DNA of 64,000 bases, taken from NCBI RefSeq assembly GCF_041260155.1, contig NC_091946.1:34997620-35061619 (forward strand), read 5' to 3'. The notes under the pieces are model-generated. The model was given only the letters and a program-made list of their open reading frames with translations, did no database searches and had not been told where the DNA came from. Source of the stretch: Ptychodera flava (taxonomy: Eukaryota > Hemichordata > Enteropneusta > Ptychoderidae). Made by a program: the position numbers and the translations under genes. Of the stretch, positions 3,081 to 57,929 are shown piece by piece. Each line of letters begins with the position of its first letter. Position 1 is the first letter of the stretch.

Positions 3081-5290
3081 TTGAGAAGAACCCATCACAT
3101 ATGGAACATAAGAAAATTCACTTAGTGAAGTATTTGCAGAAAACCTCTGAAAAAAATATCGAAAATCGGCAAAAGTGTACACTTGATTTTAAGGAGTTAT
3201 CTTTACTTTTACTTGAGTAGAGCGCCCCGAGTAACTTTCTCTTTCTTGCCATAAAGAGACTTACTACTGGTATTTTGGAACGACCAAAGTATGTCATCAT
3301 GTCTACGGTCGTTTTAGTTGTCACCATATGGCAGCTTAATCTCTCAAGCTAATAGAAACCATTCAGTTAGTTCACACCATCTGTACACATGTTGTGTTTA
3401 CTGTGTTGCTTTGACAAGGGTGTCAACAATTGTCAGTACCAGTAGCATTGTATGCTTGCAAGGTACACTCTCACTCTGTAAATACTGGGGAACCCTTTAG
3501 GATCAAAATGGAGGATAGAAAACAAAAGAAATCTGTCTTTCAGGTCATATTAAACTGAAGAGAACCAATTAACACATCACGGAGACATTTAACTTACATT
3601 TGTAAATCGTCCACAGAAATAACAAAACCTTACTAAAAAAGACATTGGTTTTTGTCACAAATCTTCACACTATAAGTTTCACATTAGTTTCGCATGACGC
3701 AGTGAATAAAGTGACGTTAGGTTTACAAAGTTTTCTCATTAGCACTTGCGAAAGATCTATTGACATATGTATATATATATTGAATGAACAGGAGTTTATT
3801 ACTGAACACAAACCATGCTTGATTAGTTTTATGACCTTAACGTCTTTTCAGTGGAATTCAAAATAAACTGATGGAAACTAAAGTCTAGAAAAGCAATTTG
3901 TCCCTTTGGAGGCTGATAAAAACAGCGCTTCGCTATCTTGCATTGACCATTAAGTGAGATAAAAGAGGTCTCTTCGCTTTCAGGTCAAGAAGCATTTAAC
4001 TAGACCATTCTGTCTGCAAGACATACAACTGTTGGCGGGTCAATGGAAACTGAGGGAAAAGGTCAGGGTGAAAAGTTTGAATAAGAATGCTGCCACCTAG
4101 TTGCCAACATAGCTCCACTGTAGTCTTTCACTGAAACAGTAATGTAGTGAGTCAGGGTATACAAAAATAAAATAAGAAGTCAACTATAATTGCTATTCTC
4201 TTGATTTTTTGACAAGAAATAAGTTAAAAAATAGAATACCAGCCAAATATTTATGACTGAAGATCAATGTGAATGAAGATATATATAACAAGGATGCCAC
4301 AGATTAATTGGCAAAAAATTCATCTTGGTCAGATCAGAACAAAATCATCTCTGGGAAACCTATCAGCCAAATTAAAGAAAAATTCCAAATGCTGTTTTCA
4401 CCATCATTTGAACAAACCTGAATGAGGGCTCTTTAGAAATAAACAGGCCACATTTCCAATTCATGTCTCTGAGAAGGTGAATTTTGAAGAAAAATGATGA
4501 ACCACTAGTATTATGAAATTGTGCATGCAAAGTTTATGCTAACTTTCACAAATGAGAATGAAGCCATTTGTAGAAAGCTACATATCATATTTAAAGATAT
4601 ACTGTCACCTGTTCCACTTTTGCCACAGTTACCATAGAAAGAAAATCTAACCAATCATAGATTTTAAGCGGGTGACCGCTTTTTAAAAACGGCACACTCA
4701 CATGGGCATTTTGAATACCAAGGAACGCCCCTTTGACCATGTATGGGCATATTTAGATTACCAGTGAGTGTATACGTTTAAAAACAAAACATACAGCTTA
4801 AACAGACCATGGCTCTTGTCCTTGTGGAAAAAATGACTACATCTGGCACTTGTCGACAATTTCTAAACAGACAACTTTTATTCAACATATTTTGCAGTGT
4901 ACAATAATTTTGTTGATACATTTACAACTAGGAAATTGTAAAAAACTTTGCACATTTTAGGTATCAGTTGTATGACTGTGTGGGGAAAAATACCACAAAA
5001 ACTTAAAATATATGCTACCTCGAAGCGAATGAACTAGAATGGGCAGAGTATACTCTCATGTAAATTGTTCATTCATAGTACATGTAGTTAATTTCCAAGG
5101 TCACCCATAAAACAAGAGAACAGTTGTACAATGTTTGGAGACAAATAGACACCAAAAAAGTTTACTTGAAACACATCTTGAAGCCCGCTACATACTTTAA
5201 CAAGATTTTGAATGAAATGAATGGTCCTTATGGGCTGAAGATCTATCGCTTGATTGAACTACTCTAGGGACACAGAATCCTTTACCAATG
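3081..5290. other. Unannotated AT-rich stretch
   Basis: I see no gene, no repeat shared with other parts of the window, and no convincing splice-site chain. Short open frames near 3318-3500 and 3645-3866 have no recognisable features. Confidence 0.5.
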
Positions 5291-5360
5291 TAGTCCGTGG
5301 GCTAGAGGGGGTCTACGTGCACCCCCCCCACAGGATAACAAACCTGTATTTTTCAGAACC

Positions 5361-8230
5361 CTTGGGATCCCTAGAATACGAAATGGAATTTTAACAGGAA
5401 AAATATAGGGACGCAATAGCTGTTATGGTCATGTTTTGAAGGGTACCGCAAAATCACGATTTTCCAAGCCAAATGCATTTTCGTCAAATCTGTTTTCTTG
5501 TAAGTCATGTGCTGAGCTCTTTTTTTAACATAACCTCACTTGTTTGGTATCATTAGAAAGGGAATTTATTCCTCTTTAAGATGACATATTGCATTATGCA
5601 ATATCTTCTACAGTTTTTGTCAAATATAACCAAAACTTACCCCTTACCCCAAAATTTAACATTGCAAATTACAGTAAAACTCAAATTCTACCAATTTTTT
5701 AGCTGGGCATAATAAAATATGCATTGCTTTGTCTGAAATCTGTTTTATTTGATACAAGGACATGTCAGAAATATGAAATAGACTTTTAACAGAAAAAATA
5801 TTGGGAATCTACAGCTGTAACAGTCATATTTTGAAGGGTACCGCAAAATAACAGTGTTGCAGATTTGCATGCATTTTTGTTAAAACTGTCTTCCTATAAG
5901 TTATCTGCTGAGCTTGTTTTTGGATATAACCTGGCTTGTTAGGTATCATTAGAAAGATAATTTACTAATCTTTGAAATGACATATTGTAACATGCAATAT
6001 CGTGTGTAGTTTTCATGATATGTAACCAAAACTTACCCCATACCCCAAAGTTTACATTGAAAATTTCAGTCATAGCTAAAACCAAATTCTACCATTTTTT
6101 AGCTTGACACAAAAAATCTGGCCGTTTTTGCTATGAAATCTATTTTATTTGGTACAGAGACATGTCAGAAATATGAAATAGACTTTTAACAGAAAAAATA
6201 TTGGGAATCTACAGCTGTAACAGTCATATTTTGAAGGGTACCGCAAAATAACAGTGTTGCAGATTTGCATGCATTTTTGTTAAAACTGTCTTCCTATAAG
6301 TTATCTGCTGAGCTTGTTTTTGGATATAACCTGGCTTGTTAGGTATCATTAGAAAGATAATTTACTAATCTTTGAAATGACATATTGTAACATGCAATAT
6401 CGTGTGTAGTTTTCATGATATGTAACCAAAACTTACCCCATACCCCAAAGTTTACATTGAAAATTTCAGTCATAGCTAAAACCAAATTCTACCATTTTTT
6501 AAGCTTGACACAAAAAATCTGGCCGTTTTTGCTATGAAATCTATTTTATTTGGTACAGGGACATGTCAGAAATATGAAATAGACTTTTAACAGAAAAAAT
6601 ATTGGGAATCTACAGCTGTAACAGTCATATTTTGAAGGGTACCGCAAAGTAACAGTGTTGCAGATTTGCATGCATTTTTGTTTAATTTGTCTTCCTATAA
6701 GTTATCTGCTGAGCTTGTTTTTGAATATAACCTGGCTTGTTAGGTATCATTAGAAAGATAATTTACTAATCTTTAGAATGACATATTGTAACATGCAATA
6801 TCGTGTGTAGTTTTCATGATATATAACCAAAACTTACCCCATACCCCAAAGTTTACATTGAAAAATGCAGTCATAGCTAAAACCAAATTCTACCATTTTT
6901 TTAGCTTGACACAAAAAATCTGGCCGTTTTTGCTATGAAATCTGTTTTATTTGGTACAGAGATATATCAGAAACATGAAATAGACTTTTAACAGAAAAAT
7001 ATTGGGAATCTACAGCTGTAACAGTCATATTTTGAAGGGTACCGCAAAATAACAGTGTTGCAGATTTGCATGCATTTTTGTTAAAACTGTCTTCCTATAA
7101 GTTATCTGCTGAGCTTGTTTTTGGATATAACCTGGCTTGTTAGGTATCATTAGAAAGATAATTTACTAATCTTTGAAATGACATATTGTAACATGCAATA
7201 TCGTGTGTAGTTTTCATGATATGTAACCAAAACTTACCCCATACCCCAAAGTTTACATTGAAAATTTCAGTCATAGCTAAAACCAAATTCTACCATTTTT
7301 TTAGCTTGACACAAAAAATCTGGCCGTTTTTGCTATGAAATCTATTTTATTTGGTACAGAAACATGTCAGAAATATGAAATAGACTTTTAACAGAAAGAA
7401 TATTGGTATTCTATGGCTGTAACAGGCATATTCTGTGGAGTACTGCAAAATCACAGCAGTGCAGACTCATATGTGTTTTTGTTAACTTTGTCCCATTGTA
7501 GGTCTTCTGCTGCGCTTATTTTATTACATAACCATGTTTATTTGGTATCATTAAAAAGCTAATTTACTACTGTTCTAAATGACATATTGTTATATGCCAT
7601 GTCTGATATAATTTTCATGGAATATGACGAAAACTTACCCCATACCACAAAGTTTATATCGAAAATTACTTTCGTAGCTATCGTCAAATTCTACCAATTT
7701 TCTAGCTAGACATAACAAATAAGGCAATGCTTTATATGAAATCTTTTTATTTGGTACTGAGGAATGTCAGAAATATGAAATAGACTTTTAACAGAAAAGA
7801 TATTGGGACTCTACAGCTGTAACAGTCATATTTTGAAGGGTCTCGCAAAATCACAGTATTGCCAACTCGCTTGCTTTTTTGTTAAATGTGTCTTCTTATA
7901 AGTCATCTGCTGAGCTTGATTTTTGACATAACCTGGCTTGTTAGGTATCAATAGAAAGGTAATTTACTAGTATTTAAAATGACATATCGTAATATGCAAT
8001 GTCTTGTTTAGGTTTCATGAAATAGGACCAAAACTTACCCCATACCCCAAGTTTACACAGCAAATTACTGCAAATCTGAAACTCTACCTTTTTTACAATT
8101 TATTAACTTTATATACCAAAGGCAATGCTTGTATGCAATCTATGAAATCTGTGATTTTGTTAAAAAAGTATGTCACAAATATGAAACTAACTTTTAACAG
8201 GAACATAATATGATTTTGTAGCCTTTTGGA
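5361..8230 (+). repeat. Left arm array, about eight ~400-bp units
   Basis: The landmark CATGTCAGAAATATGAAATA recurs, with small variations, at 5761, 6161, 6562, 6963, 7363, 7763 and 8169, a period of 400-406 bp; the outermost unit starts near 5361. The units between 6161 and 7363 are nearly identical to each other. Those nearer the centre (from 7363 on) are clearly more diverged. Each unit contains the marker words TTGAAGGGTACCGCAAAAT and ACTTACCCCATACCCCAAAG. Confidence 0.9.
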
Positions 8231-8304
8231 TCATATTTGGAAGGGTACCCAGGTATCAGGGCAAATTTGCCGAAACACATACATTTGCAGTATATGGGTT
8301 CCCC

Positions 8305-11300
8305 CTCCAAAAATGATCCAAATGGCTACTAAATTGTATCATCTTCCCGTTATAAGTTAATTTTATACTTGTGACATACTTTTGTAACAAATAAATCAGA
8401 TTTTAAACAAGAATTGCCTTTTGTATTATGTGCAGCAAAAATGGTAGAATTTAAGATAAGCCGTAATTTGCGATTTGAACTTTTTGGGTATGGGGTAAAG
8501 TTTGACCATATTCCAGGAAACCTATGAATGACATTGTATATGACAATATGTCATCTTAAAGAAAAATAAATTGCCCTACTAATGATACCTCACAAGCCAG
8601 GTTGTGTCACAAAATAAGTTCAGCAGATGACTTACAAGAAGAAGAATTTAACAAAAAAGGTGCCAGTTTGCGGTACTGCGATTTTGCATTTCCCTTCAAA
8701 ATATGGCTGTTACAACCATACAGTCCAAATATTTTTTCTGTTAAAAGTCTATTTCACATTTCTGACATGACCCAGTACCATATACAACAGATTTAATACC
8801 GAAACAGAGCTATTTTATCATGTCTAGCTAAAAATTCACGGAATTTGATCACGTTATCTATGACAGTAAATTCAATATAAACCTTGGGTAATGGGGTACG
8901 TTTTGGTCATATTCCATGAAAAATATACAAGATATTGCCTGTTACAATATGTCATTGTAAAGAATATTTAATTACCTTTTCAATGATACTAAACAAACCC
9001 AGTTATAATCAATAACAAGCTTAGTAGACGACTTATAAGATGACAGATTTAACAAAAACGCATACGAATCAGGAATACTGAGATTTTGCTGTACCCTTAA
9101 AAATACAGCTGTTACAGCTATAGAATCCTAATATTTTTTCTGTTAAAAGTTCATTTCATATTTCTGATATGGCAAAATACAAAATAAAACAGATTTCATA
9201 CAAAAAATTGTCTAATTTTTTATGTCTGCGTAAAAAATTGCTTGAATTTGACAGTAGCTATGACAGTAGTTTTCGATGTAAATTTTGGGGTATGGGGTAA
9301 GTTTTGGTCATATTTCATAAAAATCTGTACAAGATATTGGCATGTTACAATATGTCATTTTAAAGACTAGTAAATAATCTTACTAATGATACCTAACAAC
9401 TTACATTATATTCTATAAGAAGCTCAGCAGATGACTTAAAAGACGATAGAATCAACAAAAATGCACACAAGTCAGGAATACTGAGATTTCCTGTACCCTT
9501 CAAAATCTGACTGTTACAGCTGTAGATTCCCAATATTTTTTCTGTTAAAAGTCTATTTCATATTTCTGATATGTTCCTGTACCAAATAAAATAGATTTCA
9601 TAGCAAAAACGGCCAGATTTTTTGTGTCAAGCTAAAAAAGTGGTAGAATTTGGTTTTAGCTATGACTGCATTTTCAATGTAAACTTTGGGGTATGGGGTA
9701 AGTTTTGGTTATATATCATGAAAACTACACACGATATTGCATGTTACAATATGTCATTCTAAAGATTAGTAAATTATCTTTCTAATGATACCTAACAAGC
9801 CAGGTTATATTCAAAAACAAGCTCAGCAGATAACTTATAGGAAGACAAATTAAACAAAAATGCATGCAAATCTGCTACACTATGATTTTGCGGTACCCTT
9901 CAAAATATGACTGTTACAGCTGTAGATTCCCAATATTTTTTCTGTTAAAAGTCTATTTCATATTTCTGACATGTCCCTGTACCAAATAAAACAGATTTCA
10001 TAGCAAAAACGGCCAGATTTTTGTGTCAAGCTAAAAAAAAATGGTAGAATTTGGTTTTAGCTATGACTGAAATTTTCAATGTAAACTTTGGGGTATGGGG
10101 TAAGTTTTGGTTATATATCATGAAAACTACACAAGATATTGCATGTTACAATATGTCATTTTAAAGACTAGTAGATTATCCTTCTAATGATACCTAACAA
10201 ACCAGGTTATATTCAAAAACAAGCTCAGCAGATAACTTATAAGAAGACAGTTTTAACAAAAATGCATGCAAATCTGCAACACTGTTATTTTGCGGTACCC
10301 TTCAAAATATGACTGTTACAGCTGTAGATTCCCAATATTTTTTCTGTTAAAAGTCTATTTCATATTTCTGACATGTCTCTGTACCAAATAAAATAGATTT
10401 CATAGCAAAAACGGCCAGATTTTTTGTGTCAAGCTAAAAAAATGGTAGAATTTGGTTTTAGCTATGACTGAAATTTTCAATGTAAACTTTGGGGTATGGG
10501 GTAAGTTTTGGTTATATATCATGAAAACTACACACGATATTGCATGTTACAATATGTCATTCTAAACATTAGTAAATTATCTTTCTAATGATACCTAACA
10601 AGCCAGGTTATATTCAAAAACAAGCTCAGCAGATAACTTATAGGAAGACAAATTAAACAAAAATGCATGCAAATCTGCAACACTGTTACTTTGCGGTACC
10701 CTTCAAAATATGACTGTTACAGCTGTAGATCCCAATATTTTTCTGTTAAAAGTCTATTTCATATTTCTGACATGTCTCTGTACCAAATAAAATAGATTTC
10801 ATAGCAAAAACGGCCAGATTTTTTGTGTCAAGCTAAAAAAATGTAGAATTTGGTTTTAGCTATGACTGAAATTTTCAATGTAAACTTTGGGGTATGGGGT
10901 AAGTTTTGGTTACATATCATGAAAACTACACACGATATTGCATGTTACAATATGTCATTTCAAAGATTAGTAAATTATCTTTCTAATGATACCTAACAAG
11001 CCAGGTTATATCCAAAACAAGCTCAGCAGATAACTTATAGGAAGACAGTTTTAACAAAAATGCATGCAAATCTGCAACACTGTTATTTTGCGGTACCCTT
11101 CAAAATATGACTGTTACAGCTGTAGATTCCCAATATTTTTTCTGTTAAAAGTCTATTTCATATTTCTGACATGTCCTTGTATCAAATAAAACAGATTTCA
11201 GACAAAGCAATGCATATTTTATTATGCCCAGCTAAAAAATTGGTAGAATTTGAGTTTTACTGTAATTTGCAATGTTAAATTTTGGGGTAAGGGGTAAGTT

Positions 11301-11565
11301 TTGGTTATATTTGACAAAAACTGTAGAAGATATTGCATAATGCAATATGTTATCTTAAAGAGGAATAAATTCCCTTTCTAATGATACCAAACAAGTGAGG
11401 TTATGTTAAAAAATGAGCTCAGCACATGACTTACAAGAAGACAGATTTGACGAAAATGCATTTGGCTTGGAAAATCGTGATTTTGCGGTACCCTTCAAAA
11501 CATGACCATAACAGCTATTGCGTCCCTATATTTTTCTGTTAAAATTCCATTCGTATTCTAGGGAT
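8305..11565 (-). repeat. Right arm array, about nine ~400-bp units in inverse orientation
   Basis: The reverse-complement landmark TTCTGACATG or a variant recurs near 8760, 9162, 9564, 9964, 10366, 10765 and 11164, again 400-402 bp apart, with a degenerate unit near 8380 and the outermost near 11537. The right arm therefore has one unit more than the left. The innermost mirror is centred near 8272: the segment 8165-8232 pairs with 8310-8387. Confidence 0.88.
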
Positions 11566-11640
11566 CCCAAGGGTTCTGAAAAATACAGGTTTGTTATCCT
11601 GTGGGGGGGTGCACGTAGACCCCCTCTAGCCCACGGACTA

Positions 11641-13416
11641 ATGGATTTTCAATGTTAGTAGTCTTCATGACGATACCATATTACTGTTTTAAAGCAGTGT
11701 TAGAATTGTACTTCCATGTTTGTAACTATTGAGCATACCAAGGGAAACATACAGCTTGAACTAGAACAATCATCGTTTTCTAGCAGTGAGAGTTGTCCAC
11801 GATGAACCTAAACACATAAATGTATCAAGAAGTATTACAGAAGGAGTGAAAAAAGAATAATGTACTTCACTGAGAACATTTGAATATTTGTCGGGAAAAT
11901 CTGGTACATAAGTTCTTCTACACGTTCAGACAATGGCCAAGTTTGGTTCTGAGTGCATGATGAAGAAACCAAAATGACAGCTGCACATTTTCCTAGCATT
12001 CAACGGGGATTAGATTATTGAGGAGTGACTTGCAACTCTTTCACATCCATATCCCTGTTTAGCAATCAAACTGCAACATAGAATAAGACTCTGCTACTAT
12101 TTACAAGGTGAAAGCTGAGAATATACAGTTGTCATATGACAGTTATTATCGAGAAAACTGAGAAGCATAAATGACCATAATCAACGTTAAGTTTACTTTG
12201 TTCTAAATCTGAACAACATATCTCGATTTATGTGTCTAAAATAGTTAAATTCTTGATGGCCTGTGAACTGTTTTTGTACACTTTAATAACATCTTAACAA
12301 TTGCACTTGGCAGATTCAAAATACTTGAAACCTTAAACTAACCTAAAGATATCTTTTCCTTTGGTATGGTAAGACCACACCCTTCTGATACACTGTAAAT
12401 ATTTACATCATAGAAATATACAAAAAGGTCATTCTATGAAAAATGCTGATAGTGAAAGTTCTGGGTATGTTCAGAACAAGTTTTATATTATTAAGAAAGC
12501 AGGTACCCAGAGCAGATATGGCACTCTCTTGGAAAAGTGTAGTGGTACAGTTAAAATACTACAAGTAAGGAACATGAATATAGATAAAGATAATTTGATC
12601 GTAACAGCAGATCAGTGCTTTTGTCAAGGGCAGGTACATCTCACCAGGGCTCCCTGGTTATTTTACAAGAATTCCTATAGTGTGTCAATGTAACTATGTG
12701 AGTGGATATTAACTAGCAATGGTATTTGAGTTCCCACAGCATTTACCTGTGTTCAGAAAGATTAGCAAAATCACTGCAAATTTTCCAGATGTGTACAAGA
12801 AACATTCTCACCTTGAACCAGAATACACATACTAATTGCAAAGCAAACCTAAATTTCTCTCTGCACTCATTAAACAGGTCAGTTTGTTGCAATGGCAACG
12901 GCAGAAGCATGATCTCTTATGAAGTTTAAAGGCAGCATCTATGTACGCAATGTGCAAAATTCAAACATTTGAAAACAACTTTGAGTATGTTTGTGTTTTA
13001 TACTTTGTTTTTTTTCTTAAAAAATGCCGTTTCAGTTTACATGATAAATAATGTGAGCTAAGCAACAATTTGCTGCAATTCCAGATACAGAGATAAATGC
13101 GATAGAATTGTGTCTGTAAGTTCAGAGTGGATGAGGTAGCAAGGTAAATATGATCATTATATGCAGTTACTTTTACTGGTTACTTTCTTCACAACGATAA
13201 CATAAATGTAGTTAAATCTAATTTTTCTATTCTAGATATGAGCCCCTGCAAACTACACCACAAGTGCTGTCAGTGACTTTGTTGATCGGCCAATGAACAG
13301 AAAGAATGAATATGACTGATACCCTACGAGTGAGATGATTGGTCAGCTATGTACAAGTCCAACGAATCACAAACATTGCACCTTCTAGTCCGGAAATGAA
13401 GCATTCTTTCTAACCA
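11641..13416. other. Downstream flank and probable 3' UTR of BLZF1
   Basis: No gene is recognised. The part nearest 13416 should include the 3' untranslated region of the minus-strand BLZF1 gene, but I could not place a convincing polyadenylation signal. The open frame at 12436-12693 has no recognisable domain. Confidence 0.4.
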
Positions 13417-28708: not shown

Positions 28709-29534
28709 GTCAATGCACAGTCCCTTGGTGGGCTACTCAGCTCTGGGGCTATTCGCCCCATAGACGAGTATACAGAAGCCACAGGGTACAGGGGACAGTC
28801 CCCTGGGGTGGAGAGGACGGTGTTGAGTTTTTTTGTGCAACGGTTTACCTTATTTGATTTTATTAATTTTGACTATGATATTTCAAATAAAGAGGTCAAC
28901 TCTACACCCTCTGACTGCTTTATTATTACTGACAAGTCCTTATCTCCTCTCCAACTTGTGTATACACCTCTGTAATTGCTCCGAAAACATTGCCAACTTA
29001 CTAATCCGCTGTCCGTATCAGCGGATTAAGTGATTGAGTCAACACCACAGCCCTGTGGGACGGCTGTGGTGTTGACTTAATAAGCTAATCCGCTGATACG
29101 CTCAGTCATTAACAAGTTGGCAATGTTTGCGCAGCAATTAGAGTGGTATGTGCACTGGTTGAAGAGGAGATAAGGAATTGTAGGTATTGGAAACACAGTC
29201 AGACAGTTTGGAGTCGAAAGCAAGTTGGTAATGTTTTTGGAGCAATTACAGTGGTGTATACATAAGTTTGAGAGGAGATAAGGACTTGTCGGTAATAATA
29301 AAGCAGTCAGACGGTGTGAGTTGAACTCTTTATTTGAAATATCACAGTCAAAATTAATAAAATCAAATAAGGTAAACCGTTGCACAGAAAACACCTTCCT
29401 CCCCACCCCAGGGGACTGTCCCCTGTACCCTATGCAGAAGCGAGAAACACCCTCGCTTCTGTACACTCGTCTATGGGGCGAATGGTCCCAGAGCTGAATA
29501 GCCCACCAAACGACTGTGAGTCAATGGCATTGAC
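28709..29534. mobile_element. 826-bp foldback element with unequal arm sub-repeats
   Basis: Starting with GTCAATGC on both outer ends, the arms fold along nearly their whole length: CTATTCGCCCCATAGACGAG pairs with its complement near 29470, the stretch from TTGTGCAACGGTTTACC to CAAATAAAGAG (28836-28895) with 29320-29385, and CAACACCACAGCC around the centre near 29055. The ~110-bp block containing CTTATCTCCTCT and ATTGCTCCGAAAACATTG occurs once in the left arm but twice in the right. A further partial copy lies at 30885-31095. Confidence 0.85.
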
Positions 29535-30843: not shown

Positions 30844-31095
30844 GAGATGGGTCGACTTGTTGATCTATTGATAAATCAAAGGGGGAAGAAATCAGTCCCC
30901 TGGGGTGGGCAGGGAGGGTTTTTTTGTGCAACGGTTTACCTTATTTGATTTTATTAATTTTGACTGTGATATTTCAAATAAAGAGTACACTTAAAGCCGT
31001 CTGACTGCTTTCTTTATTAGCCTACTACAAGTAATTTTATTAATTTTGACTGTGGTATTTCAAATAAAGATTTCGACTCCACACCGTCTTTTTAG
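30844..31095 (+). mobile_element. Fragment of the 28709 foldback family
   Basis: After a 35-bp sequence shared with 23177-23211, the stretch CAGTCCCCTGGGGTGG ... GTGCAACGGTTTACC ... CAAATAAAGA repeats the left arm of 28709-29534. Here the TTTTATTAATTTTGACTGTG block is itself duplicated (about 30950 and 31038). Confidence 0.7.
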
Positions 31096-32007: not shown

Positions 32008-32780
32008 ATTTCTTTGACTGCTGTGATTGTATCATTACTTTATATAGCAAATGTAATTGCCTCTGATCAAGTCCTTCAAGCTATATATGCCAAACTGTGA
32101 AAGCTCAGTAGATATGAAAATTATAAATTGACTGACATGAAAATGCAAATGACTTTCAATATTGTTTTAGCCTGATATCATAGATGTACACAGAATGTTT
32201 TGTCAACTTTGATCAAGTAAATCCCAGTATATATCCCCAATTAGGAAAGTTCATTAAATATGCAAATTTAGGAATTGACTGAAGTAAAAATATTTAATGA
32301 CTGTCAATAATGTTGTATCATAGTATCTTTAATGTACATAGCAAGTTTCGTCAACTTTGGTCAAGTCAATACAGATAAAGAAGGAATTGGCTGAAGTAAA
32401 ATGCTTATTGACTTTCAATAATTTTGTATCATAGTATCTTTAATGTAAATAGCAAGTTCCTTTTATTTTGGTCGAGTCAATTCAAATATAAATCCCTAAT
32501 TTCAAAAGTTTATTTAATATAAATTGGGAATTGGATGAAGTAAAAATGCTCAATGACTTTCAAGAATATTGTATCAGTATTTGCAATATATGTAGCAAAT
32601 TTCATCAACTTTGGTCTAGTTAATACAGATATATCTCTAATTAGGAAAGTTCATTAAATATGCAAATTAGGAATTGGCTGAATTAAAAAAGCTTCATGAC
32701 TTTCAATAATGTTGTTTTATAGTATCTTTAATATATTTAGCAAGATTCATCAACTTTGGTCTAGTCAATTCTAGTCAATT
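32008..32780 (+). repeat. Degenerate tandem array, about six ~110-150-bp units
   Basis: Units begin TGACTTTCAATAAT-like and contain ATAGTATCTTTAATGTA, TAGCAAGTTTCATCAACTTTGG and GGAATTGGCTGAAGTAAAA. Starts fall near 32010, 32150, 32300, 32410, 32553 and 32697. The units differ in length because the GTTCATTAAATATGCAAATT part is missing from one. Confidence 0.8.
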
Positions 32781-37198: not shown

Positions 37199-37445
37199 TT
37201 TAAATTAAACTGTTTTCAATCAAGATGATGTACTGCCATAGAAACTACCATAGAAACACATACAGACATTTTGTTTTGCATTACCATACTACATGTACAT
37301 GTACATGTAGACTGTTCACTTGTGCCATTGTGGCCTTTGCCAGTTAGTGCTGCTCAAACATATCACCAGACAAGCATAGCTCAAGGAAAGACATAATGTT
37401 GAAAATAATAAGTCCATCATTTTTTGTTAGATTTCAGGAGGAGGT

Positions 37446-40400
37446 ATGCCGAGTATTGAAAACCTTAGAACAAGTTCTGACCAACATGAAGAAGCCATGG
37501 ACCAAAGAAACAATAATCAGCAGGCATTCCTAGCTGAACATGAAGAAATACAGAGCTACTGTGATAGCGATAACAGTGAACATGACAAGTCAGGAAAGAG
37601 AACTCAAGAGAGCAAGGAGAAACCAAAGACATGGTTAATCTGGAAAAACACCTTGTGTTTATCAATAGCGTATTTCCTCCTGTTTGGTGCTTACATGGGA
37701 CTCCAGATTCTGCAGAGCAGCATTAACTGTGTAGCTGGCTTGGGATTCGTGTCTTTGGTGGTGGTCTATGCATGCATGCTTTTTTCTGGCCTCTTCTCAC
37801 CGCCGCTTGTAATCGGCTGGCTTGGAGTAAAGAGGACAATTGTATTGAGTATGATTCCATATATAGTTTTTACAGCAGCCAACTTTAAACCTCAGTGGTA
37901 TACAATGATTCCAGCATCTGCCATTGTTGGACTTGCTGCCCCAATCATTTGGACTGCCCAAGGGATATATGTGGCTACAGCTGGCCGAAAACTGTCTGCT
38001 GTCACAGGCAAACCATCAGATCTCTTGATACGTAGAAAGATGACCGTGTTCTTTGGAATAGCCTTTCTTTCAAGTCCTGTTTTCCTTCTTGTTCCCTCAT
38101 TTATTTACTCAAGTGACTCCCCGAAAAATGAGACGGGGCCCTCACTAAACCACTCTTTCGAAAGTCAAGCTACTTGTGGTGCAAGTGACTGCCAAGAAAT
38201 GCAGGGTAACAAGACCACTTTTTGTGATCCTCCAGACAAAAACCTGACAAATATCCTCCTTGGATTTTATCTTTCTATGGGCTTTGCTGCAGTTGCTACT
38301 GTTGTATTCCTTGTGGATCAAATGGCTGAAAATGGGATGGCAAAACAGGTGACACTGAAGAAACTTTGAGCAACTTTACACCTCTTGGGAAATTATAAAA
38401 TGCTATTGCTTCTTCTTCTGCCATGTTACACTGGGTTAGAGGCTGCATTTTTCAGCGGTGATTTTCCTAAGGTATAAAGCACTTTAGTTGCCAAACTAAC
38501 ATTGGAACAGAACCATTTTATTTGTCTTGATTAAGTTATTTGTCTAAGATTCTTACATATTGAGTTCTAACTGATGTTATTAGATGAACAGTATGCCAAG
38601 TATCTGTCAGCACCTCCCGACATTCAAAGTGGGCATTCGTAAATGACAAACAATCTGGACTTTGGTCAGATTAATTCATCCATGTACACGGTAAATACCA
38701 ATTAGCAATGAGTAATGCATTCAAACATTCTTACATTATGTTCAGCCATGCAAAAAACAATCACTGCACTATGTACAAAACTAACACAGCTATTTCTTTT
38801 CTTCCTCCACAGTCTTATGTCTCCTGTATTATTGGTATAGACATGGTTGGATATATCATGTCTGCTTCGGGATTTTCCTCCCTGTTTGGATTCTGCCTTC
38901 TAAATATAACAGCAAAGAGACTTGGACGGGTTATCCCTATGATTGCAGCTCTGGTGATCTGGCTTGCATGCTATGCTATGTTATTGTTCTGGCCTCCTGA
39001 CTCATCTGGTACTAAATTGGTATTCTTGATTGCCATACTTTGGGGACTTGCCGAGAGTGTCTTAGTAACACAGTATTCATGTAAGTTAAAACCTAAAACA
39101 TTACCAATTATTTGTCAGCATTGCATGTTAATTATAATGACCTTAGGTTAAGTTTAGGTTAAGTTTTTGGAATACTTTAACTTGATAGAAAACATAATGT
39201 TACTATATGAGCTATGAGCTGTAGACAGGTTTAGTATGTATTAGTACAGCATGCAAGAAGCAACTTTAGTAAGCATACGGTTATACTTTACATGATATAT
39301 CAAAGTCTTTTCTTTGTTACAATATCAATGTGACTTTAAAGATACTTTGTTGGTATTTTTGGAGCATGCCCATTACATTGACAAGAATTTACCTATAGCA
39401 GTATTGATGTCGGTTTTTAACTGTAGTTGATCCCATAAAAGTATGGTAGTTTTAACAGTCACTTTTTTAATGTTTTGTTTTATTCAAGGAGTGTGTTCTG
39501 GGTAATAGACTCATTTACTGAACAATTAAGTCTTGCAGATATTTGCCTTCAGAGTTGTAACCAACGAGTAATGCATGGTCAATACTATCTTTTTGCTTCT
39601 TCGCTTCGATGAAGTTTGTATTTGCGATGTGTGATAGTGAGCATGCGTGCGTGAGTGCTTCACGAACTCTACAACGTGTGGAGCAGTCTCAGTCAGAAAA
39701 ATGTAACAACTTAGCCGCTATTGAACCACTCTTTTTTGGGAGTGGAGATTTAGCCGAGCGGTTCTCTCTGTGGCCTCTCCGCTGGGCGACTGATGCTGTA
39801 TGTTGTGGGTGCGAACCCGATTGAAAACTAGCCGTATTTGCTGCTTGGTTTTTATTCCCCACGGACAAAGTACAGGGGACTTATACATTAAATAGCATCG
39901 ATCCACACCAAGATCTCAAATAGGGCAAGGCTGATTTCTTTCCAACTTGGCACAAGGATAACATACCACCACACGCGTACGCACTTCGTTTTTATGAGAC
40001 CATATAAGGCAATCAGGTGGCGATTGTTATGTATGAATGTATGTTTCCGCTGCCTTCTCAGTTGTGCCAGCATGTGTATGCACTTCTTTTTTGACCATCA
40101 GGCAGCCATTTTTTTAAGTATGAATGTACATTTGTACTGCCATCTCAGATGTACATGAACAGATTTCTAGCAAATTTTGTAAATGCATTATGGCTTACAT
40201 ATGCATGTTGATTTGTTTTTTGGTATGCTCAAATATAGCCACTAGGCGGCCATATTGATATATTTGCATCCGTATGTGTGATTATGCAGATACTTACATT
40301 TTGTATTACATCAGCTCGTTTGTTTAAATTTGTACAAGGACAAAATGACAATGATCCTTACATGAGAGTTTTGCAATGCAATTAAATATGGCCATCTGGC

Positions 40401-42843
40401 AGCCAATTTTGTAAAATATTTCAATTTCAATAATGGGCATTTCTTTGCCATTTTTGGATACATATAAAACATGGCCAATACAAGGCTGTTGTTAGTCAGC
40501 ACATGTGCGCCATTTTGTAACATAAAAAGATCCAAAATGGCTATTGGAGAGCAATTGATCACGAGTTCGGGTCAGGATAACTGCTATCCATACTGAATAC
40601 TGTTATACAACACCTTAACATAATGACAAGTATGTTGGCATCAGTATCCTGATCATATAATTTGAAAATGACTATTTCAAATATGCTAGTTTGATTTTCA
40701 GACATCAAAGCAATGGCTTCTTTGAAGCGACTGCAAATAAGATAATTTCAACTATTTCAGGCCTACCATAGAAATTATGTGTAAAGACTCAGAAACATAC
40801 AGTAAAGGTAGCAAACCTTGCACGTGTAACATCCCATCCATAAGGTGTAGCCTCTGAGACCTCAAAGTGAAGCAAAAATCCGTAAAGTGGAGCCTCCGAA
40901 ACTTGCAAGTGTAACATTAATTTCCTTCCTTGACGCTCAACATGCATATATTAGAAAGTGTTTCTCAACACCTATCTGTTTCAATATTAACAAATCAGAG
41001 GACCAAGATTTTTAGCTTCAGAAATAGAGATCTACAGCTTCCCTTCTTTCAGTGGGTTAAGTTTCATGAGAAGAAAATAACTGGTAAGGCATATAAGGCC
41101 TCCATTAAACTTTACAGGTTTTGTTATTAGAAAGCAATAATATTATGATACACAGACGATATGTACAGAGAAAATACTGCAACTACACATGCTAGATAGC
41201 ATGTTAAATGTTCATACAAACCTTCATTATGTTTCACTTCTGCTTGATCTCGATACATGGTATTTAATATCACTGTATAATGGTCCAATAAAGATATTGT
41301 CTGTCACTGTAACACTTGAATCTAAGATACAAAAGATATTACACATTTTAATCTGTTTTTTAAACAATCAAATGTTATGTACAGTATGAGTTCACCAATC
41401 TTATTCTCCATTCACTACTTTGTGTCTATGGAAGTTAAAGCATTCTACATCATGCTACACTAGTGTAAGTCACACTTTTGCGTGTCCTCAGCAGTACAGC
41501 GGTTGCAATTCATTCTGGTACCTCCATGTCAGATGCACATCATCAACACCCACTTACTGATGTCAAAAATCTACATTTTCTTACAAATAATGACAGAGTT
41601 GCTAGGGGCTTGCACAATAACCATTTATGTCTAGTAGAAAATCTAAACTAGATCAATGTTGCTTGGTTAAAATTATATGGAAGGCGAAAAAGGGGATCAG
41701 AACTGCCATTCATGTGTGTATATGGTACCACCGGCCTGGTATGGTAAACTGCATCAGTCTCAGACCAACCAAGCCACAACTGAAACTTCAACGAAGTACT
41801 CTGAAAGAACTGCATTAAATTCTGACTTGAAACTTTTACCTGTAATTTTTTGTCTTCATATTTGTTCATTGATAGCAGTTTTGAAAACCAAAACATTTCT
41901 AACGTGGTAAAATTGTGTAAAATCGCTTACCTTCACCGGCAACGGAGTACCACTGGTCACAGGCAATACCGGATAAAGCCCCCCTGGCCACTACTTGAGA
42001 TTTAACAAAGTACTCCGAAAGAACTACATTCAATTCTGACTTGAAACTTTCGTCAGTAGTTCTTAGTCTTCATAGTTGATTTTTGATAGCAGTTTTGTAA
42101 ACAAAAACGTTTCTAACATGGAAAAATTAGCGTAAAAACGCTTACCTGCGTCGGCGGTGGAAGTGGATGAAGATCGTCACAAGTGGTCAAGGAAGGAAAT
42201 TAATGTTACACTTGCAAGTTTCAGAGACTCCACTTCACAGATTTTTGCTTCTCTTTCAGGTCTCGGCGGCTACACTTTATGGATAGGATATTACACTTGC
42301 AAGTTTCAGTACCTTTACTGTATGTTTCTGAGGCTTTACACATAATTTCTATGGTAGGCAGGAACTTACAGGAGCTTAGTTATTGAAGATAACTTGTGAT
42401 TTAAAGAGTGGATGGGGGAACCAAGTTACTCATCATCTGAAATCTATTCTGCCTGCCAAACTTCTGTTAACCTCTCATTAGATATAAACGTATTTTTTGA
42501 TGGTAATGTACATTCATATTTTGCTCTTAGGTCAACTTTATTTGAAATTTATCTTTGATTCTTCTTTACAGCTGTATTTGCAATAATTTTTCCAAAACAA
42601 CAAGAGGCAGCCTTTGCAAATATCTCACTTTGGAGGGCAGTTGGAGGCACCATTGGTTTTTCAACGAGTCTATTCATGTGCGTTTATGTCAAGATAATAC
42701 TGTTGGTTACCTTACTTGTTGTATCCTGGATGCTGTACTTTATCATGGAAGTCCTCCATCGTCGTGAGCTTCACGACAAAATCAAAACATTACAACTGCA
42801 AGAACTCAAGTACTCAAGAGAACCAGAAGATAAATTTAAATAA
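37446..42843 (+). CDS. UNC93A: UNC93A-like membrane protein, three coding exons, one in-frame TGA
   Basis: UNC93 proteins are 11-12-pass membrane proteins related to the major facilitator fold. UNC93A itself is a poorly understood plasma-membrane protein, whereas UNC93B traffics nucleic-acid-sensing Toll-like receptors. Exons are 37446-38471, 38813-39080 and 42572-42843, all GT-AG and in phase, 522 codons in total. A ~65-residue hydrophilic N-terminus is followed by NTLCLSIAYFLLFGAYMGLQ (TM1), then WLGVK, NFKPQWYTMIPAS, a glycosylated loop with CGASDC, and, in exon 3, FPKQQEAAFANISLWRAVGG, matching human FxxxKEAAFANYRLW. Codon 308 (38367-38369) is TGA where the neighbouring paralogue has serine, and the frame after it (ATLHLLGNYKMLLLLLLPC) stays conserved. 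An in-phase alternative donor CAG/GTGACA at 38349 would skip the TGA but lose 41 codons, including one membrane segment. An acceptor (TTTCAG) lies just before the start, implying a leader intron. Alternatives are a pseudogene, a polymorphic null, or a sequencing error. Confidence 0.88.
39709..39840 (+). mobile_element. tRNA-Leu-like SINE, copy 2, in UNC93A intron 2
   Basis: Leader CTATTGAACCACTC, A box TTTAGCCGAGCGG and B box GGTGCGAACCC. It aligns with 34266-34396 through GATTGAAAACTAGCCGTA. The following ~700 bp (to ~40560) repeats words such as CATCAGGCAGCCATTTT, CACTAGGCGGCCATATT and CATCTGGCAGCCAATTT at ~130-150-bp spacing, and may be its tail or a separate degenerate array. Confidence 0.72.
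40762..42358. mobile_element. 1.6-kb element with ~175-bp inverted ends in UNC93A intron 2
   Basis: The left arm starts CCTACCATAGAAATTATGTG and runs to TTAATTTCCTTCCTTGAC (~40935). The right arm (from ~42183) is its reverse complement at roughly 85-90% identity by eye. CAGG flanks both ends (40758-40761 and 42359-42362), a candidate 4-bp target duplication. Each arm holds two copies of a CTTGCAAGTGTAACAT word. The interior contains a ~210-bp direct duplication (from ~41790 and ~42005) with GTACTCYGAAAGAACT and GATAGCAGTTTTG. No transposase is visible. Confidence 0.75.
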
Positions 42844-46414: not shown

Positions 46415-49400
46415 TTAAATATAAGAGCCATGTTTGAGCGGGCCAGTAGCTTTTATGTCATGCTTGTCCTTGGGTTTCTCGCTATCCTTAGACATTTTGG
46501 AAATGATGAACTCTAATACGAAGTACAAAGCGAAGGAAAACACAAGTAGTATGATCAGGATCACAATCTTCATGTAAACACACATAAACAAACTTGTGGA
46601 AAATCCGACGATGGATCCGAAAGCAAACGACAGGTAGAAGTTCGCGAACGCTGCCTCCTGATCATTCGGGAACGTTATCGCAAAAATTGCTGTAAGAAAA
46701 TAGAGAGAAATGATATTTGCAGTTGGGCTGTTTTTCTGGGAAATATTGAATCGCTTTTGAATCAGAAAAGCTAATGTGTACAATGACTTTGTATGTAAAT
46801 AGTAGAGAGTGATTTGTTGTATCTTTAAAGGAGTACATTGCTCTAGACTTCTTTTAGCAACACATTCTTCTGTAGAGTACTGTGTACGTGTATTTTATCT
46901 AAAAAAACATGAACACGAGTCTTTCATAATGCTGTCACTTCACATGATAGAATGACTTTGAATAAACCATCGACTTTTCATGTATAGTTATGCTATCACC
47001 TTACAGAAACCCTATGATACTATAAGTCTTGCTTCCGGACCCCAAAGTCACACGGTATTTCCTTGACATGACTGTAAAAGTTGTGTTGCCTCAAAATCGC
47101 AATGATGCTTTCATTTCGATTTTACATAATCACTTTATTTTTGACTGAATAACTAGATATTTTATGACGACTTCTGAGTATCACGTTATAATTAAAAGAT
47201 AGTGTGTAATGTAAGACATTGTGGCAAATTAAGTAAATGTGTCCAAAATGTTTGAATTCATACCATATCTGGCTAAATGATTTAATGATGGAATCTGTGT
47301 TTACTTAAAAATTGTCTCACACATACAGAAAGAAAATATGCCAAATGATTGACTCTTACTAGAAGTTACACACTTACATGTGATCTCGACCATTGAAGCA
47401 CTATATGCAATACCGCATAGTGCAGAGATTGAAAACACCATGATAGTATCCCATTCGTTGGAAGACCAAACCAAGAGTATCGAGCAGGAAGCCAACCAGA
47501 TTAGGAGGGCCGCAATCATCGGAATAACTCTCCCAAGCCTCTTCCCGACCAAGCTTAGAAAGCAGAAGCCCACCATACTTGAAAGACCATTACATGTGAC
47601 GACATAGCCAACCATATCGACGCCAAGAAGACAGGAAGCGTAAGACTTGAAATAAAAGAACAGTGATAAGATTTTCGCAAATTACTTGGTGCTAGATTAT
47701 GGGATTAGAAAAAAGTGAGAAATGCGCACTGTTATGTAATGGATACTGCAACTGATCTACCACACAAGGGCTTATCAAATGCGCCACTTACATTGTTATG
47801 TACAGCACGCAATTTGTGATGTACACATTGTGATGCTTTTGTTCATACAATTACTTGCGCTGTCATGTTTGTGTTGAACATACTGATTGGTCGAAAAAGT
47901 TTCACAACGATAATCAAGTACGCAGTCATCCAGTACACTACGGCGGCATAAATGTAAAACTGTAACAAAATCTAAGTAACGACAACATTTCAGGAACAAG
48001 GGTATATACATTTTGAAGATCCAAATGTTGATGAAAAATACGCAGGAAAAACTTTCACCCTTTACCTCTCCCTCTATAAGAGAGGAATTTACTCTTTGCA
48101 ATGTAGAGACTATTTTGCCTGACTTTACCCCAAACCATTTTTCCATGTACAGTGTGCCTTTCTATCAAAATAAGACAGTTTTACTACAACAAATCATCAA
48201 GAAGTGAAGAAAACATGTGTTACATGAATCGCAGTATGGCAAAGATGAGTATAAGGGCAAGTAATACCACCAGTGCATGACTTTCTTGTTTTTCACAATA
48301 ACATATATGTGCCAAACGTGAAAACATTCAAGCCAATCCTTAAGTAATGTTGTTGAGGAATGTTGACAATTTGTTCCTCACCTTCGTAAAATCACCGCCA
48401 AAAAACGCGCCTACATATCCGCTATGCGCCGGAAGAAGTATAAGTAAAAGCATTCTATAATTTTTCCACAATCGAATCGTTGCTGAGAGCCTACTAAACG
48501 GTCCGTTTTGAGTGTTTTCCTCGCTTGGACTTGTCAGCTTATTAAAGTTGTCAACTAAAAGTAAAACTATGGCAACTGCAGCTATGCAGGCACAGACGAA
48601 AACTCCAAGCATAATATTGGTCAGCTGTTTATCAGGTGGGTTGCAGAACGTTGTAATGTTTCCCTGCGTCTCTTGACAGTCTTTTGCACCACAAGTGTAA
48701 GTTTCAATTCCGAAAGTTTCATCTTCGTTAGTTCGGTTTGTCTCAGACATGCTGGAATATAACAGGGATGGGATAAGTGAACCGACTGGAACACTAGCAT
48801 AATATATGGATAAAAAGACAGCCAAATTTTGATTTATTGACGCGTCGACTGATTTTCCTGTTAGAGCGGATAATCTTCGACCAGCCGCAGACACATACGT
48901 TGATTGCGCTGTCCATACATTAGGTGCAGCAAAACCGAGCAGAGTGGATGCTGGAATCATTGTATACCATTGTGGATGAAAGTTTGCCACGGTGAAACAG
49001 ATATAGGGAATAATAGACACAGCAATCGTCACTTTGACGCCCAGCCAGCCAATCACAAGTGGCGGAGTGAAGAGACCAGACACTAACATACAAGTGTACA
49101 CGACAGTCAGGGAAACAAACCCTAGCCCAGCCACACAGTTTATAGTACTCTGTAAGTTCTGAAGACCCAGGAATGCTGTAAACAGAAGAAAATACGCGAG
49201 TGCCAACCAAACCGTGTTCTTCCAGACTTGTCGCGGTTTCACTAGTCTTCTAACAGCTTCTCTTCCTTTCCTCTCAGACTTTTTTGTCTCATAAAAATTC
49301 AGTGACATGAAGCTCTCTGTATCTTCCGCCTCTGCGAGTGGTGCTACGTTTCCTCTTTCAACCGTATTTCCGAAAAGTGGCTTCTTTGAAACTGTGATGT

Positions 49401-49437
49401 CATCTCCAAATTTAAGGTTATCCGATATCTCGGACAT
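46415..49437 (-). CDS. UNC93A: UNC93A-like membrane protein, three coding exons, intact
   Basis: Coding exons on the minus strand are 49437-48382, 47645-47378 and 46689-46415. Donors and acceptors are GT-AG, phases fit, and the total is 533 codons, 532 residues (human UNC93A 457). The N-terminal ~80 residues are hydrophilic. Membrane segments start at NTVWLALAYFLLFTAFLGLQ. Family signatures include WLGVK, NFHPQWYTMIPAS, CGAKDC in a loop with N-glycosylation sites (NRT, NIT), KRLGRVIPMIAALLIWLA and FPNDQEAAFANFYLSFAFGS. Exon boundaries and phases are the same as in the plus-strand copy, and the conserved membrane core is about two thirds identical by eye, so the two arose by local duplication with inversion. 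An acceptor (TTTAGCAG) abuts the ATG, again implying a leader intron. Function is inferred from family only. Confidence 0.93.
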
Positions 49438-49441
49438 CCTG

Positions 49442-50496
49442 CTAAAAAAGAAAATATATGATTACATTTGAGCATAGGGCCTTTACCTTCTCAAAGCAGC
49501 ACAGATTAACTGTGTGGACGAGTAACAAATGCTTAAAGTATTAACAGTTGCATGCTGAATGTGTAAAACTACAAATTGATCAGCGTTTGATCAAACGTTG
49601 TAATTGAACCCATGATAGTGTAAAAAAGTGACGATGAGTAGTCACTCTTATCAGTAACAACGTGGCCAATAATGGATGTAAGACCTAAATTTTATGGTTT
49701 GACAAAAGCAGTGCATTAGTTTCATCGTAGTCTTACCACTCTGCATAATTTGCACACTTTTTTGCAAGTTTTAGAATAAATGTTCACCCTGTCAGTCAGT
49801 AAATCGTTGATGTCATCGAAGTTTCAGCGTTTCTTAAAAAGTCAAGAATCATGAACATTGCAGTAAAATGTCAACTGCCAGGTACAAGTTTTGTTAATTT
49901 AATACACACAAGATAAAAAGCATTGAGTTGATGTCAATCATCCGAAATAATTTTTTTCCATTGACATGTGCTTCGCTGATGGAAATTTATGAATTGTTAA
50001 CGTAAACTTTGTCAGATGAAAATTTTTGAAACTTCCAAGACATCGAATGCCAAAAATATAATGTATAGAAATTCGGTCCACCCTAAGTGGTTTTCTTTAG
50101 ATCTTTCAAAATGCCCTAACAGAGCAAAACTTAATATTGCAAAAAAATCAGTTCATTTCATGATACAAACTAATGTGTTTCCGAGCAATATTATCTAGGA
50201 GTTAGGTTAAGCCTATAACAAAAGCAGATGGAAAAGCAGATAAAAAGGAATCAAAATGGTGATTTTCGGTAAAAAATATTAGTAGCTTTAAGTTGAATAT
50301 GACAGAGGGTTATGGTCAACTATCATGAATTAACATTGATTAACTGTGATAATAGATGAATGCAGTCCAATTCAATTCATCAATGAATTCAATTTATATG
50401 TATTTGACGCATCCTTTGCTGACTCGTGGTAACATTGTCACGAGAGCGACACCTGTCGTTTTTATGAAAATAAGATAAAATGGGGTCACAAGAATA
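49442..50496. other. Upstream flank of the minus-strand UNC93A gene
   Basis: Presumably holds its leader exon and promoter on the minus strand. No specific element can be supported. Confidence 0.4.
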
Positions 50497-50656: not shown

Positions 50657-51575
50657 CGTGGTCACAAGGACATCGTGGATGCAATTTTTTATCTGACCCA
50701 TTTTTACATGAAAATGGCCTCATTAACGTCCAAAAGTAGACTTGAAAAGACAACAATAACACATGTAGATCCCTAAATTTGATTTAATCATGTGTAGAAA
50801 TTGAACTTTGAATACAGTATCTATCCTTCGTAACAGCTGACACATTGCAAAATGATTTCTACCATGTTCGGCACTTCGACTTTAACGCAGTTGCTCAAGG
50901 TTGGTGGTCAGCACATTCTACATTGTCAATACATTCGTCATGTGCATATACGTGTAAGAGAGTGGCGTATTCGACTTTTGAGCCATAAATTTGTTCTGCC
51001 TATTGTCATTAAGAAAACTGACACTCGGAAAACATGCACTGAATATAGATTGAAATACCTTTCTTTCCATTCACATACGTGGGAGCGCTGATATTGACCT
51101 CAGCTTGGACAGCATGGAAACATTGACCTCAATCGGTACATAAACTATGAACCATTGACAGAGGGGCACACGTGCTGAATGAGCACAAATTGGGAATTGT
51201 GAGTCTTGATCACACTACGGTCAAAGTCAACTACTACAAATAAACAAAGGCCTAAACGAATGGCATATTTACATATACAGGCTAGACCCCATATCATGGT
51301 TTTCATAGCCTTTGTAACTAGCTCAGTTTAACTGTCAATATCGTTTCAAAAGTTAGTCTCTAAAATGACTGTTTTTATCACTGGAGGGGTAAGGAACCTG
51401 TGATTATTTACAGTCGGAGATGGTCGGAAGAATTGCCAAGGACATTCAGAAATTTTGAGTAGAGCCCCGACCAATATTCAACCCCCTCCCCTTTCTGGCT
51501 CGAAATTTTGCGTAAGTTCTTCACCCCCAAAAAAGGATGAGTGCGCGCGCGAGCGCGGACTCACACATTATTTAA

Positions 51576-51704
<129 letters not shown>

Positions 51705-52877
51705 TAGGTATATATGTATTACCATATTCAACACTTCTTTAACGCAGGTCTCAAGGTTAGTATATTCTCCCTTGTCATTTTATTCTTCATGTGAATGTAC
51801 GTGTAAGAATTCGAAGGCGTCGTATTCGACTTTGGTGCAATATATGATCGTAAAGTTGAAATAGAAATTCAACTTCGAATACAATGTTTATTCTTCGTGA
51901 CAGCTGACACGCTGCACACGCACATTCCTACCATTCTCAGCACTTCAACTTCAACTCAGTTTTCAGTGTTGGTCAGCACATTCTACATTGTCAATATGTT
52001 CGTCATGTGAATATAAGTGCAAGAAAATGTCCTTTTCGACTTGCCATAAATCTGTCTACTTTCATGAAGAAAAAAATGACATTCGGAAAACATGCAGTGA
52101 ATAGGCTATAGATTAAAATACCTTTCTTTCCATACACATACGTTGGAGCGCTGATATTGACCTCTACTTGGACAGCATGGAAACATTGACCTCAATCAGT
52201 ACATAAACTATGAACCATTGACAGCGGGGCACACGTGCTGAATGAGCACAAATTGGGAATTCTGGGTCTTGATCACACTACGGTCAAAGTCAACTATTAC
52301 AAATAAATAAAGGCCTAAACGAACGGCATATTTACATATACAGGCTGACCTCATATCGTTGTTTTCATAGCCTTTGTAACTCGCTCAACTTAACTGTCAA
52401 TATCCTTTCAAAAGTTAGTCTCTAAAATGACTGTTTTTATCACTGGAGGGGTAAGGAACTACTTTGATAGCATGGAAACATTGACCTCAATCGGTACATA
52501 AACTATGAACCATTGACAGAGGGGCACATGTGCTGAATGAGCACAAATTAGGAATTCTTGGTCTTGATCACATTACGGTCAGAGTCAACTACTACAAATA
52601 AACAAAGGCCTAAACGAACTGCATATTTACATATACAGACTAGACCCCATATCATTGTTTTCATAGCCTTTGTATTAAACTCGCTCAACTTAACTGTCAA
52701 TATCGTTTCAAATGTTAGTCTCTAAAAAGACCGTATTTATCACTGAAGGGGTAAAGAACCTGTGATTATTTACGGTCGGAGATGGTCGGAAGAATTGCCA
52801 AGGACATTCAGAAATTTTGAGTAGGGCCCGCCGCAAAAATTGATGAGTGCGGGCGCGCGAGCGCGGACACACACATT

Positions 52878-57120: not shown

Positions 57121-57929
57121 CAGAGTGGTCAAAGTGGATCTGAGCCCACCGGCTTTATTTCTTAATCATCTCAATTAGAGTCTAACAAAGTGTGCAACAC
57201 ACTTTCTGACGTTAAACCCCTCTTATACTCAATTAATGATGTCAAGGTCAATTCTTCTCAACATAGCATTATGGGTATTTTCGAACCATTTATTCACGAT
57301 GGTTTAATATCACTTTCTAGCTGGCAGGGTACGCTTACCCATTCCGGACACCTGGTACCACCACTATTTTGTGGTTCAAGATGACCCAATTGCCTTTGTC
57401 ATTTTCAATATGTTCCTCGGATCTGGTAAATTTCTTAGTTACCTTGAATGATAACGATTATTGGACCTGATTTGATGTCTATTGTCTTCTGCTGCCCCTG
57501 TCAAAATTTTAAGAGATACCTGATGTCATAGTCTCTTTAGTTGGCAGATGCCCATCCGTTTTCTGAAAAGCCATTTTCAGGTTCTAAAGTTCTTATTATG
57601 GGGTAGATTGTAGTAACTACATTCCTGTTCCTCTCCATAATGTCCATTTGCCTTCGGACTTTGTTTCTAGACCTGTGACTTTAGATATTAGGCCTTTTTG
57701 CCTTTTGAAGGGATTCACCTTCTCCTTAGAAACGACCGTGCTGAGGACAACGTCATTACAAATCCACTTAAGACCGATAAACTTGGTTTAGATCAGGATC
57801 AATAGCCAACTGAGCAGGAAATTTTTGAATGTATCCTGCATGTGCTGTTACTTGAGTCATGTCAAAAAAATACTTCTAAGAATCAAAGAATCAAAATATT
57901 ATAAAAAATAACGTCACACTTTTCTTTCA

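What the first reader, a model, noticed from the sequence alone, without database searches (positions are those of the whole stretch)
5291..11640. Giant foldback element made of mirror-image ~400-bp satellite arrays
Two arms of ~3 kb, each an array of ~400-bp units in opposite orientation, are bounded by near-identical ends with a plausible short target duplication. A transposon whose arms are satellite arrays of such long units is unusual: known foldback elements have far shorter sub-repeats. It could be a route by which satellite DNA is dispersed.
Basis: seen in the sequence. Interest (0 to 1): 0.8.

Follow-up and report, generated by a model that had tools for sequence, protein, structure and literature searches.

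The report
Large foldback transposon with satellite-like arms
A 6.35-kb stretch of eukaryotic DNA is a near-complete palindrome whose two arms are mirror-image rows of 400-letter repeats; it is most likely an unusually large member of a known class of mobile DNA, the foldback elements, which can give rise to satellite DNA.

Summary
5291-11640 (6,350 bp) is a palindrome with arms of 2,976 and 3,358 bp and a loop of about 16 bp. Each end is a 95-98-bp flanking domain (95 of 95 aligned bases identical, 3 gap columns); the rest is ~400-bp units, 7 plus a fragment (left) and 8 plus a fragment (right). The outermost units match each other (99.2%) far better than any other unit; the innermost pieces are also partners (about 82%). 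So the inverted layout is old, and the outer arms were homogenised later. No ORF exceeds 78 codons. Best reading: a non-autonomous foldback DNA transposon. Proof of mobility is missing: the only candidate target duplication is 3 bp, no second copy lies in the window, and the source genome is not held. Two other foldback-like elements in the window (61278-62471, 28716-29518), unrelated in sequence, have exact 8-bp target duplications and repeated units in their arms, so the architecture recurs here. It is a large new member of a known kind.

The parts
5291..11640 (.). whole foldback-like element, 6,350 bp, palindromic to its centre
5288..5290 (+). candidate 3-bp target duplication ATG, left copy (weak)
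11641..11643 (+). candidate 3-bp target duplication ATG, right copy (weak)
5291..5388 (+). left flanking domain (98 bp); its first 47 bp are 64% G+C against 31% in the unit arrays; no similarity to the unit above shuffles
   Evidence: tip hairpin weak, z -1.97, 8 of 200 shuffles as good
11546..11640 (-). right flanking domain (95 bp), 95 of 95 aligned bases identical to the left one, 3 gap columns
5389..5783 (+). unit L1 (outermost variant; 99.2% to R1 in pairwise alignment, 73-80% to the other full units)
5784..7385 (+). core units L2-L5 (5784-6183, 6184-6584, 6585-6985, 6986-7385)
7386..8191 (+). inner diverged units L6 (7386-7785) and L7 (7786-8191)
8192..8266 (+). L8p, innermost unit fragment; partner of R9p (59 of 72 aligned bases identical)
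8267..8282 (.). central loop, 16 bp
8283..8355 (-). R9p, innermost unit fragment of the right arm
8356..9550 (-). inner diverged units R8 (8356-8746), R7 (8747-9148), R6 (9149-9550)
9551..11150 (-). core units R5, R4, R3, R2; R3 is a mosaic of the L4 type and the L2 type
11151..11545 (-). unit R1, mirror partner of L1

Best explanation
A non-autonomous class II (terminal-inverted-repeat) transposon of foldback architecture. Inferred mechanism: a transposase made elsewhere recognises the ~95-bp flanking domains and moves the whole palindrome by cut-and-paste. Both arms are arrays of a ~400-bp unit. The inverted layout arose early (the innermost pieces are old mirror partners). Later the core units multiplied inside the arms by unequal exchange, and sequence was copied between the two arms (gene conversion or repair through a hairpin or cruciform), which kept the outer ~0.9 kb 99% alike while the inner part drifted to about 80%. 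Shown: palindrome, end domains, unit arrays, pairing of the outermost and the central pieces, mixing of core unit types across the arms, absence of long ORFs. Inferred: transposition, trans-acting transposase, gene conversion. The superfamily cannot be assigned.
For: End domains alike at 95 of 95 aligned bases and different in composition from units and flanks. Outer 888 aligned bp: 883 identical, 5 gap columns. L1 and R1 are a clade (98/100 and 100/100). The central fragments L8p and R9p are specific partners: score 39.5, against 17.5 for R9p with the best of 15 other unit starts and a maximum of 24.5 in 500 shuffles. L7 and R8 are sisters at 95/88 or 90/86. Left-arm units as one clade are rejected (log-likelihood 301.6 lower). 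R3 carries L4-type bases up to alignment column 251 and L2-type bases from column 294. Longest ORF 78 aa of 21 listed at 50 aa or more. Two other foldback-like elements in the window have exact, non-palindromic 8-bp flanking duplications.
Against: No second copy: 0 hits outside the element in the window. Candidate duplication only 3 bp, met by 2.0-5.7% of random end pairs. The L7-R8 pairing is moderate: by raw identity L7 is nearer to core units (80.4%) than to R8 (76.5%), and a test of unit order does not single out the observed order (tied for best with 2 of the other 23 permutations). No flanking domain-unit similarity above shuffles and no significantly conserved block in the unit, so nothing supports the units as extra transposase sites. 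The element's small ORFs were not searched against family libraries.
Confidence: 0.75

Rival explanations
1. Not a mobile element: a local satellite array plus a piece of its flank was duplicated in inverted orientation in place (replication template switching), giving a palindrome with matching ends.
For: One copy in the window, no convincing target duplication, no transposase in or near it seen.
Against: The inverted repeat stops abruptly at both ends at a G+C-rich tip unlike the flanks (64% against 36%), as transposon ends do. The outermost and the central pieces have very different ages (99% against 82%), so a single recent duplication does not explain it.
Confidence: 0.17
2. Assembly artefact: a folded-back chimeric read or mis-joined repeat copies.
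For: Palindromes are a known product of chimeric reads (recalled); L2, L3, L5 and R2 are almost identical, so the number of units could be mis-assembled.
Against: A folded-back read gives arms alike up to the centre; here the inner units differ by about 18-20%, the arms differ by one unit, and the loop is unique.
Confidence: 0.03
3. A genuine genomic satellite was captured by a small inverted-repeat transposon, rather than the units having arisen inside the element.
For: Flanking domain and unit share no detectable sequence, unlike Tetris, where a 37-bp stretch is shared (PMC4079207).
Against: Not testable without the genome; mirror pairing from centre to ends fits amplification inside the element at least as well.
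Confidence: 0.3

Closest known systems
Tetris, foldback transposon of Drosophila virilis (PMC4079207; abstract and the first parts of the Results and Discussion sections seen)
   Same: Long inverted arms made of a flanking domain followed by tandem units of a few hundred bp; no coding capacity; arms with varying unit number; units high in A+T.
   Different: Units ~220 bp, arms up to 1,735 bp, a middle domain between the arms, 8-10-bp target duplications, and a 37-bp stretch shared by flanking domain and unit. Here: ~400-bp units, arms of 3.0-3.4 kb, a 16-bp loop, 3-bp candidate duplication, no shared stretch found.
Galileo, subfamily F, Drosophila mojavensis (PMC3573991; passages seen)
   Same: Long inverted ends with direct tandem repeats of ~210 bp whose number differs between the two ends of one copy.
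   Different: P superfamily, inverted ends to about 1.26 kb, two or three units, 7-bp duplications; a transposase is known for the family.
TCAST transposon-like elements of Tribolium castaneum (PMC3411249; passages seen)
   Same: Satellite sequence in opposite orientation inside the terminal inverted repeats; non-autonomous; 3-bp target duplication (ACT).
   Different: At most 1,181 bp, one near-complete monomer plus a 121-bp piece, 306 bp of non-satellite DNA between; not arrays.
Tm1, Mutator/foldback family of root-knot nematodes (PMC3169594; passages seen)
   Same: Composite inverted ends of several domains with tandem repeats.
   Different: 13-15-bp units, 9-bp target duplications, a Mutator-like transposase.
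Two neighbours in this window: 61278-62471 and 28716-29518
   Same: Inverted arms with repeated units.
   Different: No significant sequence similarity to this element (best cross-match E = 0.10); 8-bp duplications, tips starting CACAG/CATAG.

Membership tests
Foldback (FB-like) DNA transposon | long inverted arms that can fold back on each other | tested here: met
Foldback (FB-like) DNA transposon | arms internally repetitive (tandem sub-repeats) | tested here: met
Foldback (FB-like) DNA transposon | distinct flanking domain at the outer ends | tested here: met
Foldback (FB-like) DNA transposon | target-site duplication | tested here: inconclusive
   ATG only; 2.0% by chance at given ends, 5.7% with one base of freedom; 8-bp scan does not find this element
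Foldback (FB-like) DNA transposon | several dispersed copies with varying unit number | not testable with these tools
   no genome held; 0 other copies in the window
Mutator, P or hAT superfamily | 7-10-bp target duplication and a related transposase | tested here: not met
   7-10 bp flanks do not match for this element; no transposase seen; the two neighbours do have 8 bp
Tetris-like (flanking domain and unit share sequence) | shared stretch between flanking domain and unit | tested here: not met
   four comparisons; 39 to 256 of 300 shuffles reach the score

The most novel reading that the evidence does not exclude
This genome runs a general process that builds tandem arrays inside the inverted arms of unrelated transposons (400-, ~173- and 108-bp units in three sequence-unrelated elements within 64 kb), and arm-to-arm copying from the ends inward keeps such giant palindromes foldable, making them nurseries and carriers of satellite DNA.
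Probability: 0.22. Interest if true: 0.6.

Novelty: new member of a known kind. Interest (0 to 1): 0.4.

Why it matters
How satellite arrays start and spread is an open question, and foldback transposons are one documented source (Tetris). This copy records the order of events: an old inverted core, multiplication of middle units, and recent homogenisation of the outer arms. Its mobility and any satellite offspring can be tested at once in the source genome. If other copies show the same gradient, arm-to-arm conversion in a transposon palindrome could be measured.

Tried and rejected
Rejected: artefact by folded-back read (inner arms differ); coding element (longest ORF 78 aa); known structured RNA (0 Rfam matches at gathering scores in the window); unit derived from the flanking domain (no similarity above shuffles); conserved protein-binding boxes in the unit (longest invariant run 9 bp reached by 313 of 5,000 shuffles; best 20-, 30- and 50-bp windows by 836, 3,838 and 1,374).

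Led nowhere: exact scans for element words: end word, unit word and flanking-domain word in viral contigs (0 each), unit word and end word in genome contigs (0 each); one 401-bp unit against phages, distant mode (no match). These collections are viral or prokaryotic and exact scans miss diverged copies, so the zeros say little. An automatic arm extension ran past the true ends into the flanks and was replaced by ends read from the sequence and checked. TRF finds no tandem array in the neighbour 61278-62471 (0 rows), whose units were found only by pairwise repeat search. The test of unit order was uninformative for the inner units. Paper searches gave no foldback of this size; this is not a claim that none is in print.

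Full report
Observation. Repeat finders show inverted arms and two head-to-tail arrays of ~400-bp units, 5375-8057 (6.7 copies) and 8543-11551 (7.5 copies). The ends are TAGTCCGTGGGC... at 5291 and its reverse complement at 11640. Each arm begins with a flanking domain of 98 or 95 bp, 95 of 95 aligned bases identical with 3 gap columns; its outer 47 bp are 64% G+C, against 31% in the unit arrays and 36% in 2 kb of flank on each side.

Anatomy. Cutting at the unit start gives 7 full units plus a fragment on the left and 8 plus a fragment on the right. The two fragments are the centre of the palindrome: 8192-8266 pairs with 8283-8355 around a 16-bp loop. Their local score is 39.5; 500 shuffles reach at most 24.5, and the right fragment scores at most 17.5 with the start of any of 15 other units, while the left fragment reaches up to 30.5 with core units. 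The central strand folds with z -6.67 (0 of 200 shuffles as good); the tip hairpin is weak, z -1.97, 8 of 200.

History read from the units. Pairwise identities across the arms, outside to inside: flanking domain 100%, L1-R1 99.2%, L2-R2 99.5%, L3-R3 97.2%, L4-R4 95.8%, L5-R5 96.5%, L6-R6 79.6%, L7-R8 81.9%, L8p-R9p 81.9% (in the multiple alignment the figures for diverged pairs are some points lower). L1 and R1 are 73-80% like the other full units, so their likeness is specific to their mirrored place. Trees unite L1 with R1 (98/100; 100/100) and L7 with R8 (95/88; 90/86). One clade of left-arm units is strongly rejected (log-likelihood 301.6 lower). Core types are mixed across the arms: L2, L3, L5 with R2 (82/76, 84/75) and L4 with R3 and R5 (97/94); R3 is a mosaic of the two types. 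Against this: by raw identity L7 is nearer to core units (80.4%) than to R8 (76.5%), and a permutation of the four non-core right units leaves the observed order tied with two of the other 23. The outer and central partnership is firm; the L7-R8 partnership is moderate.

Mobility. The element has no ORF longer than 78 aa among 21 listed at 50 aa or more. A direct repeat of ATG abuts both ends, but 2.0% of random end pairs in this window do as well, 5.7% if ends may shift by one base. No second copy lies in the window. No genome is held, and exact scans of viral and prokaryotic collections were empty, as expected for eukaryotic DNA. That the source is a eukaryote, probably an animal, is inferred from UNC-93-like and gypsy-like domains found in 4 of 8 open frames scanned.

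Neighbours. A scan for 8-bp direct repeats abutting 14-bp inverted tips (up to 2 mismatches, 120-7,000 bp apart) gives 54 pairs in the window. 52 have a palindromic 8-mer, which inverted arms produce by themselves, and 48 of the 54 lie in the main element; the two with a non-palindromic word are 61278-62471 (ATCATTAT) and 28716-29518 (AGTCAATG). Ten shuffled windows gave one pair in all. Both have repeated units in their arms: about 173 bp (left arm, 88% over 104 bp) and 169 bp (right arm, 84% over 63 bp) in the first, though TRF reports no array there; 108 bp in the second, two units on the right (75%) and one on the left. They share no significant sequence with the main element (best E 0.10). 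Foldback architecture with unit arrays thus occurs three times in 64 kb. No control for how often this happens in other windows was run.

Comparison. Tetris has a flanking domain and ~220-bp units in arms up to 1,735 bp, and its authors show that it supplied units for satellite arrays (PMC4079207). Galileo F has ~210-bp units in numbers that differ between the ends (PMC3573991). TCAST transposon-like elements carry inverted satellite segments and a 3-bp duplication (PMC3411249). The present element is larger in unit, arm and unit number than the figures seen there and has almost no middle, but the kind is known. Paper searches were by word in an open-access library, so larger examples may exist in print.

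Verdict. Most likely a large non-autonomous foldback transposon of unassigned superfamily, with inter-arm homogenisation inferred. Interest 0.4; new member of a known kind.

Noticed in passing
61278-62471: Second foldback-like element, 1,194 bp, exact 8-bp duplication ATCATTAT, tips CACAGGCGCACGACG/CATAGGCGCACGACG, two units of ~170 bp per arm; the inner pair is more alike across the arms (92%) than the outer pair (82%).
   Followed up: partly
28716-29518: Third foldback-like element, 803 bp, exact 8-bp duplication AGTCAATG, 108-bp units (one left, two right); a related fragment lies at 30893-31089.
   Followed up: partly
61014-61127 and 62960-63072: Inverted pair (92%) that encloses the element at 61278-62471.
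   Followed up: no
40756-42364: Inverted pair of 179 bp, 89%, 1,251 bp apart; no exact flanking duplication found at the ends tried.
   Followed up: partly
37431-38366 (+) and 48343-49461 (-): Two diverged UNC-93-like genes or gene pieces in opposite orientation (Pfam PF05978).
   Followed up: no
57905-60616: Gypsy-like retrotransposon pieces: integrase zinc-binding domain at 57905-58486, reverse transcriptase at 59673-60035.
   Followed up: no
50795-52829 and 32061-32775: Further direct repeats: 50795-51397 again at 51862-52459 (87%), and a 111-148-bp tandem array at 32099-32769.
   Followed up: no
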